DNA of 64,000 nt, taken from a virus. A program made the translations under genes and the position numbers. Numbering within the stretch: position 1 is the stretch's first letter; every line of letters starts with the position of its first letter. The stretch lies in the IMG/VR virus record IMGVR_UViG_3300032797_000632, positions 1-64,000 of that record; one strand, written 5' to 3'. Below are positions 1 through 52,712 of this stretch, one piece after another. The notes beneath the pieces were generated by a model. The model saw only the letters and a list, made by a program, of their open reading frames with translations, did no database searches and had not been told where the DNA came from.

Positions 1-168
1 GCCGAAAACAGGTTGAATGCGGTCTGGAGCTATGAGTCCATTCCCGGCTACAAACCCCGGTACAGGAGGAAGAGATCCAAAAAGCCGGGGCGAAAGCCGG
101 ATCCGGTCCGGCCCGAGGACATGTCGAGCGTCATCCCCGGGCGAGTGAAGCGCCGGATCGAATTGTGA
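1..168 (+). CDS. C-terminal end of an unidentified protein, cut by the window edge
   Basis: Frame 1 is open from the first base to TGA at 166-168 and gives 55 residues. They are basic and proline-rich, with KKPGRKPDPVRPED in the middle and RVKRRIEL at the end. No start is visible, so the gene begins upstream. The next gene follows after 10 bases with a GGAACGAG-type ribosome-binding site, suggesting one transcript. Function unknown. Confidence 0.5.
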   Translation, partial: AENRLNAVWSYESIPGYKPRYRRKRSKKPGRKPDPVRPEDMSSVIPGRVKRRIEL

Positions 169-44913: not shown

Positions 44914-45849
44914 ATGGTAAAAACATCGATAATCGGAATCGGCGGGGCGGGTGCCAACATCGTGGGATCCATTTGCGGGGCGTTCAAGGGGAAAAACCTC
45001 CCCGCCGAGTTTGCCGTCCTGAACACGGATGTGCAGGCACTCGGATCGATAGTCGAAAGGCATAAGCTGGATCCGGCGATATCCCACCAGATAGGCAAGC
45101 GGTCCACCAATGGCCTCGGGGCAGGAAGCATTCCCGAGATCGGGGCTGCCGCCGCCAAGGAGGATATTGCATTAATAAGAAGCCTAGTTCAGGGCCGGGA
45201 TCTCGTCATGGCCGTGGTCGGCATGGGAGGGGGGACCGGATCCGGGGCCTCCCCTATCCTCATGCACGAGGCCCGGGAGGCCGGAGCTCTGACCGTCTGC
45301 TGGATGGTAATGCCCTTCTCCTGCGAGGGGGCCAAGAGGGCCAAAATCGCCCGGGCGGCACAGAAGGAGGCCGAGGCAGAGTCGGACGCCCATGTGGTGG
45401 TGGCCAACGATGTGGTCGAGGACTTGGTTTTCAAGGATGCGATGGCGAATATCAACTCGACCATTGGCCGGGGGATCGAGGTCATGATCCAGGTGCTACT
45501 TGACCCTAGCCTGATCAACTTGGACTTCGCTGACTTCCGGACTGTGCTCAAGGCCGGGGGCCGGGCACTATTCTCCTTCGCCGGATACGATGGGGAGAGG
45601 CGGGCCGGCAAGGTGTCGGACGATCTGCTGAAATTCTCCCTCCAGCCGGCCACAAACACCAAGCGAATCAGGCAGTGCATAATATTCATCCGCGGGGGAT
45701 CCGACATGAGGCGGGACGAGATCGAGGGCGTATCCACCGCAGTGCAGAAAAAACTGGATGAGGACGCCCTGATGCTCATGGGCGTATCGGTGGGAGCGGA
45801 AAAGGGCCCGCTCGAGGCCGTGTTCTTCGGGACGATGGCGGAGAAATAA
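44914..45849 (+). CDS. FtsZ/tubulin-family GTPase
   Basis: 311 residues. FtsZ landmarks occur in order: GIGGAGANIV (residues 8-17), LNTDVQAL (36-43), GLGAGSIPEIGAAAAKE, tubulin signature GGGTGSGASP (105-114), VMPFSCEGAKRAKIA, and LINLDFADFRTVLKAGGRAL. They bind GTP and polymerise. Length matches the FtsZ core without the C-terminal tail that binds FtsA/ZipA. It is closer to FtsZ than to PhuZ or TubZ by these motifs. Possible roles are centring phage DNA, partition, or blocking host division. It is preceded by a palindrome. Confidence 0.9.
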   Translation: MVKTSIIGIGGAGANIVGSICGAFKGKNLPAEFAVLNTDVQALGSIVERHKLDPAISHQIGKRSTNGLGAGSIPEIGAAAAKEDIALIRSLVQGRDLVMAVVGMGGGTGSGASPILMHEAREAGALTVCWMVMPFSCEGAKRAKIARAAQKEAEAESDAHVVVANDVVEDLVFKDAMANINSTIGRGIEVMIQVLLDPSLINLDFADFRTVLKAGGRALFSFAGYDGERRAGKVSDDLLKFSLQPATNTKRIRQCIIFIRGGSDMRRDEIEGVSTAVQKKLDEDALMLMGVSVGAEKGPLEAVFFGTMAEK

Positions 45850-49298: not shown

Positions 49299-49676
49299 AT
49301 GCCCGGCAAAAGACGCCTCGATCTTGGGAGCAGGACATTCGAATCCAGCAGTGTTTTCGACGAGGAGGCCGACGGCCCGATCCCGAGGAAGGAGCAGATG
49401 GCCGAGTGGGTGAAGTATATCATCGAAGAGCAGGCGGACCTGGAGGGAAGCTTGCCTGATGATTGGACGGATTGGGATGTGGAGATATCCGGCGAGGTGG
49501 CCGGCAAGGAGGACGACCCGGACATGGACTGGTCTTGTGAGGCCGAGTTTGAGCTGACCGATCCGGACGGGCATCCCGCCGTGTGGGGCACCATCTGGGT
49601 GCAGGGCCACCACCCCGACCCGAGGAAGATCGATTCGATTGTGGTGCACGAGGTGGGCATATCCGCGGAGGTCTGA
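49299..49676 (+). CDS. Hypothetical acidic protein
   Basis: 125 residues. The N-terminus is basic (MPGKRRLDLGSR), the rest acidic and beta-rich (WDVEISGEVAGKEDDPDMDW). It ends one base before the ATG of the UGA-containing gene and holds that gene's ribosome-binding site. Function unknown. Confidence 0.6.
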   Translation: MPGKRRLDLGSRTFESSSVFDEEADGPIPRKEQMAEWVKYIIEEQADLEGSLPDDWTDWDVEISGEVAGKEDDPDMDWSCEAEFELTDPDGHPAVWGTIWVQGHHPDPRKIDSIVVHEVGISAEV

Positions 49677-49677
49677 C

Positions 49678-50436
49678 ATGGAGCGAGAGGCATACATCAG
49701 CAAGGAAAAAGGCAAGTGGTGAGTTCGTAGCGAGAAAAACCCCTCCTGGTCAGGAGGCTGCTACGACACCAAGCCAGAGGCCGAGGACAGGTTGGCACAG
49801 GTAGAAAGGATCAAGCACATGAAAGGCGGTGCCATGAACAAGGAAGGCGGGTTGCCGAAAACGGAAGAGGAGCTGAAGAATTATTATTGCCCGGAGTGCG
49901 GGCAGAACCCCGACAACCCGGAGCAGATCGTCTACGAGCCGAACCCGCATTATTTCTCCCCCTATGTTTGCACCGACTGCGGAAAGAGCGTGATCCCCGT
50001 CAGCAAGGACACGGGGAAGCAAATAAGCATTGAGGAATGGAAAAAGGAGCGCGAACTCCTGAAAGGAGGATCGATGGGAAAAGGCGTGATATCTGACGGC
50101 ATCAAAAAGATCGAGGACATCTTGGCCGCCAAGGAGGAGCCCGAGGAGAAGGCGGAGGGCGGGGAGGCTGAGGGTGGCGAGGAAGAGGAGCTTGTCCTCG
50201 AAACCGAGGAGGATGTGGCGGAGCTCTACGAGGAGGCCAAGGAAAAGGCCATTGAGCTTCTCGACGCCGTCATCGAGGCCACCATCGAGGAGGAGGGAAA
50301 TCCTCCCAAGTGGGTCAAGAACCCGGCGATCTGGGAGAAGGCCAAGGAGGCGGTGGAGCCGTACAGGGATAAGTATGATGAGCCCTACGCTGTTATCTCT
50401 TGGCTCTACCAAAGGCTCGGCGGAAAAATTAAGTAA
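49678..50436 (+). CDS. Candidate selenoprotein: conserved-looking domain interrupted by in-frame UGA
   Basis: ATG 49678 lies seven bases after GCGGAGG. Fourteen codons later the frame meets TGA (49720-49722) and continues open to 50436. The sequence across it, KEKGKW-UGA-VRSEKNPSW then GGCYDTKPEAEDRLAQVERI, is a domain I know from phage proteins, where Cys usually fills this place. A hairpin follows 19 bases later. Further on come a zinc ribbon (YYCPECGQ; VCTDCGK), an in-frame SD-ATG at 50062-50076, and NPPKWVKNPAIWEKAKEAVE. If UGA stops translation, only the part from about 49834 or 50074 would be made. Confidence 0.6.
49742..49757 (+). promoter_or_regulatory. Hairpin downstream of in-frame UGA, SECIS-like
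   Basis: CCTCCT-GGTC-AGGAGG is a perfect six-pair stem with a four-base loop starting with GG. The loop begins 26 bases after the UGA. As I recall, bacterial SECIS elements have a G in the first two loop positions and lie 16-37 bases from the UGA, so it fits. Confidence 0.5.
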
Positions 50437-51647: not shown

Positions 51648-52712
51648 TTACATTACCCTTTGAATGCTCGGGGACTCCAGGCTCCCGAGGGTCGGCAGGG
51701 TGCGGGCGAGGATGTTCCGCGCTCCGACGGTGTCGGCGTCGTTTGCGTGGCCGCAGGCGACGCACAGAAAGTCCTCTCCCCTGCGATTCAGCATGTCAGT
51801 CGTGCCACAGACGGGGCATTGCCGGGAGGTGTTGGCCGGATCCACGGCCACGGGCAGAACACGGTTCTCCCGGGCTTTGAGCTCGATCCGGTTGAGCACC
51901 CGCCGGTAAACCCACGGCGACATGGCCTTGCGAAATGCTTTATTTCTGTTCGGCTTCTTTCCGGTCTTGAGATGCTTGAGCTTCTCGATGCCTACGGCCC
52001 GGAGCTCGGGCCACGGGAGCTGGTTGACGGTGCGGTTGATGAGGTTGTCCCGCTCCCGGTGGGCCCGGAGTCGGCCCTTGGATCCTGGCCGGCGCCGGCG
52101 GACTCGATCCCTGATGCACTTGAAGTCGGTGCCGTAGTGGTGGCCATCGGAGTCGGAGATCAGCTTATTGACGCCGAGGTCGAGGCCGAGGATCCGGCCC
52201 TCGGTCTTGGGGGCTTGGTCGGGGATGTCGACCCAGAGGATCATCGAGTCTTCGGAGAGAGAGCATCCCTGAATGATCCTCGCCCCGGGCTGGGCCAGCC
52301 ACTTGTTGAGCACGGCGGTTTTCCGGGTGGGGATGGTGATCCGATGGCCTTGATTCAAAACCGAGAGTTTGATGATCAGATCAAAGGACTCCTCGCCCTC
52401 CTCGACGGCGACGAACTTGGCGTCGAGGGTGGCGTTGCCGTCGAACACCGGGCGGGAGGGGGGTTTGCCGAGTTCCCGGGCGGACCGTTGGGTGGCGATG
52501 ACGATTTCGATGGCTTGCTTGAGTGCGGTGCTTTTGTACCGAGCGGAGAGGCGGGAGTGCTCGAGGATTTGGTATGGGGGGATTCCGGGTTCGTCCCACA
52601 AGTTTTTGATGTAGAAGTTGACGGCGACCCGGTAGGATTCGAGGAGTGCATTAATGGCCCGTCGTTTCCGGGCGGTAGCGAATTTGAGGGTGATTTTGCA
52701 GGCCCGCTTCAT
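51648..52712 (-). CDS. tnpB: TnpB RNA-guided nuclease (IS200/IS605-type)
   Basis: 354 residues, complete. RuvC I is LGLDLGVNK (Asp178), RuvC II VGIEKLKHL (Glu243) and RuvC III NDADTVGARNI (Asp327); the zinc ribbon has CPVC and CVAC. All catalytic residues are present. No TnpA is in the window, so the element depends on one elsewhere. It lies in a gap between phage genes and appears not to break any. The guide RNA would read through its 3' end near 51,640. Confidence 0.9.
   Translation of the reverse strand: MKRACKITLKFATARKRRAINALLESYRVAVNFYIKNLWDEPGIPPYQILEHSRLSARYKSTALKQAIEIVIATQRSARELGKPPSRPVFDGNATLDAKFVAVEEGEESFDLIIKLSVLNQGHRITIPTRKTAVLNKWLAQPGARIIQGCSLSEDSMILWVDIPDQAPKTEGRILGLDLGVNKLISDSDGHHYGTDFKCIRDRVRRRRPGSKGRLRAHRERDNLINRTVNQLPWPELRAVGIEKLKHLKTGKKPNRNKAFRKAMSPWVYRRVLNRIELKARENRVLPVAVDPANTSRQCPVCGTTDMLNRRGEDFLCVACGHANDADTVGARNILARTLPTLGSLESPSIQRVM

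What the first reader, a model, noticed from the sequence alone, without database searches (positions are those of the whole stretch)
49678..50436. Candidate phage selenoprotein: in-frame UGA with a SECIS-like hairpin
After a good ribosome-binding site and 14 codons, UGA interrupts a domain whose sequence continues directly afterwards (KEKGKW-UGA-VRSEKNPSW; GGCYDTKPEAEDRL). In proteins of this kind I expect Cys at that place, the residue selenocysteine replaces. A perfect CCUCCU-GGUC-AGGAGG hairpin starts 19 bases after the UGA, with its loop 26 bases away and GG in the first loop positions, as in bacterial SECIS elements. TGA is an ordinary stop elsewhere in this genome, so the code itself is not changed.
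Basis: partly seen in the sequence, partly recalled or inferred. Interest (0 to 1): 0.85.

Follow-up and report, generated by a model that had tools for sequence, protein, structure and literature searches.

The report
Candidate selenoprotein gene in a phage
A bacterial virus gene has a UGA "stop" exactly where its relatives have cysteine, followed by an RNA hairpin of the kind bacteria use to read UGA as selenocysteine, so it is probably a phage selenoprotein, a class I found no report of; its host, and so the needed decoding machinery, is unknown.

Summary
The UGA (49720-49722) interrupts an intact 252-codon frame after a good ribosome-binding site. A second, strain-level-different assembly of the same phage carries it too. 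The first 52 residues form a widespread small phage domain (predicted beta-beta-beta-alpha). In 29 homologues I inspected, the UGA column is Cys in all 11 that also have Cys at the second cysteine column, and non-Cys in all 18 that lack it; this protein keeps the second Cys. The nearest relatives all read Cys there. Codon usage after the UGA is coding only in this frame. Downstream lies a two-part hairpin with a GGUC loop 25 nt from the UGA; it meets the published bacterial SECIS criteria and shares its loop with E. coli fdhF. Only 0.8% of synonymous recodings fold as well, and two rare codons sit in the stems.

Best reading: a phage selenoprotein with a cross-strand Sec-Cys pair, decoded by host SelB/tRNA-Sec (about 0.72). 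The main rival is a recent nonsense mutation.

Limits: the host is unknown, the phage record has no selA, selB, selD or tRNA-Sec, and no other IMG/VR record was found with UGA at this column, so evolutionary conservation of the UGA cannot be shown.

The parts
49678..50436 (+). Candidate selenoprotein ORF, 252 codons plus TAA stop, one in-frame UGA
   Evidence: one TGA inside the open frame; coding score positive in this frame on both sides of the UGA
49667..49671 (+). Ribosome-binding site GGAGG, 6 nt before ATG 49678; the upstream gene stops 1 nt before this ATG
   Evidence: Sequence
49678..49833 (+). N-terminal small phage domain (52 codons), predicted beta-beta-beta-alpha, holding the UGA/Cys pair (residues 15 and 28)
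   Evidence: Alignments A1 and A3; AlphaFold2 model mean pLDDT 80.3, strands 5-10, 13-18, 25-29, helix 32-49
49720..49722 (+). In-frame UGA, candidate selenocysteine codon (residue 15)
   Evidence: Cys in all homologues with the partner Cys
49723..49770 (+). Candidate bacterial SECIS element: lower stem plus apical stem-loop
49725..49766 (+). Lower stem: UCGUAGC (49725-49731) with GCUACGA (49760-49766)
   Evidence: Fold
49742..49757 (+). Apical stem-loop CCUCCU-GGUC-AGGAGG, -7.9 kcal/mol alone, GGUC loop as in E. coli fdhF
49759..49761 (+). Cys codon TGC (residue 28), partner of the UGA column
49888..49980 (+). CxxC...CxxC zinc-ribbon-like segment (Cys 71, 74, 98, 101)
   Evidence: Sequence; Pfam zinc-ribbon models only below their cut-offs
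50233..50433 (+). C-terminal segment (EAKEKAIELLDA...WLYQRLGGKIK), no homologue found

Best explanation
The gene is a phage-encoded selenoprotein. Ribosomes start at ATG 49678 and meet UGA at codon 15. The hairpin just downstream would be bound by the host's SelB, which delivers Sec-tRNA-Sec to the UGA, so translation continues through the domain, the zinc-ribbon-like segment and the C-terminal part. The selenocysteine would lie across a beta-hairpin from Cys28 and form a Sec-Cys (selenenylsulfide) pair in place of the Cys-Cys pair of its relatives. Shown here: intact frame, UGA at a Cys column tied to a retained partner Cys, hairpin beyond coding constraint, no Sec machinery found in the phage record. 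Inferred: SelB binding, Sec insertion, a Sec-competent host, the bond and the biochemical role.
For: Cys/Cys versus non-Cys/non-Cys partition, 11 to 18 with no exception among the homologues inspected (Fisher 3e-8 uncorrected for relatedness). Nearest relatives (L031 76% identical, L003/L004 about 60-66%) all read Cys. Residues 15 and 28 fall opposite each other on adjacent strands 13-18 and 25-29 (plus inference). Codon score of 49723-49833: +3.5 in frame, -12 to -24 in the other five frames. Hairpin: GGUC loop 25 nt from the UGA, -18.7 kcal/mol, within the published model of 3-9 nt loop, 4-16 bp stem, G in the first two loop positions, 16-37 nt spacing, MFE at most -7.5 (PMC13188914); same GGUC loop and two-part plan as E. 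coli fdhF fetched and folded here. Of 20000 synonymous recodings with phage codon usage, 0.8% reach both stem and energy; CGT (96 of 2643 Arg codons) and TCA (85 of 1980 Ser codons) are rare and take part in the stems. A random nonsense change would fall on codon 15 as TGA in only 2-3% of cases. Two assemblies carry it.
Against: No diverged relative with UGA at this column: two pattern scans of IMG/VR matched only the same phage plus chance out-of-frame matches, and a stricter scan of one genome each for 84,980 bacterial and archaeal species gave none. The two assemblies are the same strain but for two clusters of differences, so they give no evolutionary depth. Host unknown; phage record has no selA, selB, selD or tRNA-Sec. 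Many family members lack the Cys pair, so Sec is not an obvious catalytic need. The SWSGG peptide itself favours some hairpin: 9% of recodings reach the 6-pair stem.
Confidence: 0.72

Rival explanations
1. A recent nonsense mutation (TGC to TGA) at the Cys codon. The N-terminal domain is lost and the rest is made from an internal start such as ATG 49819, ATG 49834 or ATG 50074.
For: In-frame internal starts have possible ribosome-binding sites; the one before ATG 50074 (AAAGGAGG) is strong. The UGA is known from one phage only.
Against: Needs the mutation to hit the Cys codon (2-3% of random nonsense changes) and a hairpin of this quality there by chance (about 1% at Cys codons). The domain after the UGA shows no decay: every invariant residue is kept and codon usage is intact.
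Confidence: 0.18
2. Programmed or leaky read-through of UGA by an ordinary near-cognate tRNA (Trp, for example), helped by the downstream structure, making a short peptide and a long product.
For: The structure starts close after the UGA; an open frame of 237 codons follows.
Against: Does not explain why the UGA sits at the Cys of a Cys pair or why the hairpin has a SECIS-type GGUC loop at SECIS distance.
Confidence: 0.07
3. Assembly or sequencing error at this base.
For: A single base would be enough.
Against: The same TGA stands in a second IMG/VR contig that differs elsewhere from this record.
Confidence: 0.02

Closest known systems
Bacterial selenoprotein genes with bSECIS, e.g. E. coli fdhF
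   Same: In-frame UGA followed at once by a stem-loop with GGUC loop (18 nt away in fdhF, 25 nt here); UGA at a position held by Cys in relatives
   Different: Gene lies in a phage; the protein is a small accessory domain fused to a zinc-ribbon-like segment, not a known redox enzyme; the internal loop between the stems is larger
Phages reported to carry tRNA-Sec (Basilisk-like Bacillus phages, PMC6145125; wastewater huge phages, PMC10747093)
   Same: A link between phages and selenocysteine decoding
   Different: Those papers report the tRNA gene; in the passages read they name no selenoprotein gene. Here it is the reverse: a candidate selenoprotein gene and no tRNA-Sec
Poxvirus glutathione peroxidases (molluscum contagiosum, fowlpox; PMC8310308)
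   Same: Virus-encoded selenoproteins that use the host's decoding machinery
   Different: Eukaryotic SECIS and captured host enzymes; here bacterial-type SECIS and a phage-specific domain
Cys-pair members of the same phage domain (L031, L003, L004, L006, L007, L017, L023, L024, L025, L032, L071)
   Same: Same domain, same two positions
   Different: Cys (TGT/TGC) where this phage has UGA

Membership tests
Bacterial selenoprotein gene | In-frame UGA inside a conserved coding frame | tested here: met
Bacterial selenoprotein gene | Cys-containing homologues align Cys to the UGA | tested here: met
   11 of 11 homologues with the partner Cys
Bacterial selenoprotein gene | bSECIS: 3-9 nt loop, 4-16 bp stem, G in first two loop positions, 16-37 nt from UGA, MFE at most -7.5 | tested here: met
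   4 nt loop, 6 bp, GG, 25 nt, -7.9 for the apical hairpin alone and -18.7 for the whole; criteria from PMC13188914
Bacterial selenoprotein gene | UGA-containing homologues in other organisms | tested here: not met
   None in IMG/VR by two patterns or in genome contigs by one; a supporting filter in the literature, not an absolute requirement
Bacterial selenoprotein gene | Cell with SelA, SelB, SelD and tRNA-Sec | not testable with these tools
   Host unknown; the phage record itself has none of them
Bacterial selenoprotein gene | Selenium in the product | not testable with these tools
   Needs an experiment
Altered genetic code (UGA reassigned) | TGA not used as stop | tested here: not met
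   52 of 154 predicted genes end in TGA

The most novel reading that the evidence does not exclude
A tailed phage encodes a true selenoprotein of a family not known to contain selenocysteine, with its own bSECIS, and depends on the host's selenium and Sec-decoding machinery to make it.
Probability: 0.7. Interest if true: 0.85.

Novelty: new variant of a known kind. Interest (0 to 1): 0.72.

Why it matters
I found no paper in the open-access library that reports a selenoprotein gene in a phage; a 2026 review of prokaryotic selenoproteins does not use the words phage or virus. If true, a phage gene would depend on the host's selenium metabolism, would point to Sec-decoding hosts, and would show Sec in a small non-enzymatic-looking domain as one half of a cross-strand Sec-Cys pair.

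Tried and rejected
Sec machinery in the phage: none (a 23.7-bit hit is the tRNA-Met at 105160). Other in-frame UGA genes in the phage: the remaining candidates end at neighbouring genes or look like antisense shadow frames. UGA-type homologues: pattern hits L032 and L071 turned out to be Cys members matched out of frame. Host: TnpB search of genome contigs found no relative; TnpB in plasmids: the best-covering places are only about 24-33% identical; closest known phage by portal and capsid is Virus Rctr197k from a DAMO/AAA enrichment culture, host not named; the 41 kb of it that I searched match in capsid, portal and protease but not in the UGA gene. Closer relatives by capsid protein: only the same phage. 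Solved-structure and fold searches gave nothing convincing. Sample name not found in papers. tRNA-Sec in records that hold Cys-type relatives: none over the cut-off.

Full report
WHAT IS THERE. The window is the first 64 kb of a 126,141-base virus record. It carries a portal protein (phrog_16240), major head protein, head maturation protease and a PhuZ-like tubulin, so it is a tailed phage. Its closest known phage by portal and capsid is Virus Rctr197k, from an enrichment culture labelled DAMO/AAA (39% over 36% of the portal, 42% over 95% of the capsid). The ORF in question starts at ATG 49678, one base after the stop of the upstream gene, with GGAGG six bases before it. It meets TGA at codon 15 (49720-49722) and then runs open to TAA at 50436. 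Its parts are a 52-residue N-terminal domain, a CxxC...CxxC zinc-ribbon-like segment (Pfam models only below cut-off), an acidic stretch and a C-terminal segment without detected relatives.

IS THE TGA REAL. A second IMG/VR contig, 39.8 kb, is identical over this gene and has the same TGA. It differs from the window's record by 36 bases in two clusters elsewhere, so it is another assembly of a slightly different strain. This speaks against an assembly error but gives no evolutionary depth.

WHAT STANDS AT THIS COLUMN IN RELATIVES. The N-terminal domain is widespread in phages, on its own or fused to larger proteins. Among 29 homologues that I read by eye, 11 have Cys at the UGA column and all 11 have Cys at the second column (Cys28 here); 18 have another residue at the UGA column (E, Q, Y, N, F, T, S, V) and none of them has Cys at the second. 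Fisher's test gives 3e-8, or 9e-7 with the closest duplicates collapsed; neither number corrects for shared ancestry. This protein keeps Cys28, so its partner column predicts Cys at the UGA. The nearest relatives, L031 (76%), L003 and L004, all read Cys. The AlphaFold2 model (pLDDT 80) puts residue 15 on strand 13-18 and residue 28 on strand 25-29 of a hairpin; from the register I infer that they face each other, which fits a bond across the strands. That is an inference, not a measured distance.

IS THE FRAME AFTER THE UGA UNDER CODING CONSTRAINT. By codon usage of the phage's own genes, 49723-49833 scores +3.5 in this frame and -12 to -24 in the other five. All invariant residues of the family are kept. 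There is no decay.

THE HAIRPIN. From the UGA on, the RNA folds into a lower stem (UCGUAGC with GCUACGA) and an apical stem CCUCCU-GGUC-AGGAGG, -18.7 kcal/mol, z -2.65. It meets each constraint of the published bSECIS model (PMC13188914). E. coli fdhF, fetched and folded here, has the same GGUC loop, 18 nt from its UGA. How special is it? The loose model is weak in this GC-rich genome, as about a third of all TGAs would have a 4-pair stem with a G in the loop. The strength seen here is rarer: 13 of 3152 TGAs match stem, GG loop and energy; 4 of 408 real Cys codons match stem and energy, none with GG. Holding the peptide fixed and drawing codons by phage usage, 0.8% of 20,000 sequences reach both stem and energy. 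The stem alone is reached by 9%, so part of it comes with the peptide SWSGG. The rare codons CGT (3.6% of Arg) and TCA (4.3% of Ser) contribute bases to the two stems.

ALTERNATIVES. A nonsense mutation would need to hit this codon (2-3% of random nonsense changes in the domain) and find this hairpin by chance (about 1%). These two together favour Sec strongly, against a low prior for phage selenoproteins and against the selection effect of a scan over many windows; I settle at 0.72. Read-through by an ordinary tRNA explains neither the Cys column nor the SECIS form. TGA is a normal stop in 52 of 154 genes, so the code is not changed.

WHAT IS MISSING. No other record was found in IMG/VR with UGA at this column (two scans), nor in GTDB one-per-species contigs by one stricter pattern. 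The patterns require particular neighbours, so unusual members could be missed. The phage record has no selA, selB, selD or tRNA-Sec; it may be incomplete, and a phage could use the host's. The host could not be found.

HOW IT WOULD WORK. Host SelB binds the hairpin and brings Sec-tRNA-Sec to the UGA; efficiency is probably partial, with 14-residue peptides released in the remaining cases, as in other selenoprotein genes (established knowledge of SelB decoding, applied by inference). Role of the product: the gene lies in the structural module before the head protease and capsid genes, but the domain occurs in many contexts, so I propose only that a Sec-Cys pair replaces a Cys-Cys pair as a redox-responsive or more easily formed bond in a small binding domain. 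This last step is a guess.

KNOWN OR NEW. Phages with tRNA-Sec genes are reported (PMC6145125, PMC10747093) and poxviruses have selenoproteins (PMC8310308). In the open-access library I found no phage selenoprotein gene; subscription papers and preprints were not searched.

Noticed in passing
window 51648-52712 (-) and genome 80147-81205 (-), i.e. L008:16147-17205: Two TnpB-like genes (Cas12f1-like TNB domain) in one phage, 79% identical in protein; no close relative found in genome contigs by a short-pattern scan, nor an obvious one among the best-covering plasmid hits.
   Followed up: partly
genome 66765-66803 and 84815-84987 (L008:2765-2803 and L009:815-987): Between two assemblies of the phage all 36 differences sit in two tight clusters (7 in 39 bases; 29 in about 170 bases at the contig end, within a 1353-aa ORF), the rest of 39.8 kb being identical.
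   Followed up: no
window 44914-45849: FtsZ/PhuZ-like tubulin gene (phrog_4733, E 4e-5) in a 126-kb record with portal and capsid of a jumbo-phage-like group.
   Followed up: no
L063:115-738, L064:118-741, L040:1510-2910, L005, L018 and others: The same small beta-beta-beta-alpha domain sits at the ends or inside of many unrelated phage proteins (for example the C-terminus of the gp57B-like protein of KP15 and RB43), with or without a co-occurring Cys pair; no Pfam family matched it at E up to 10.
   Followed up: partly
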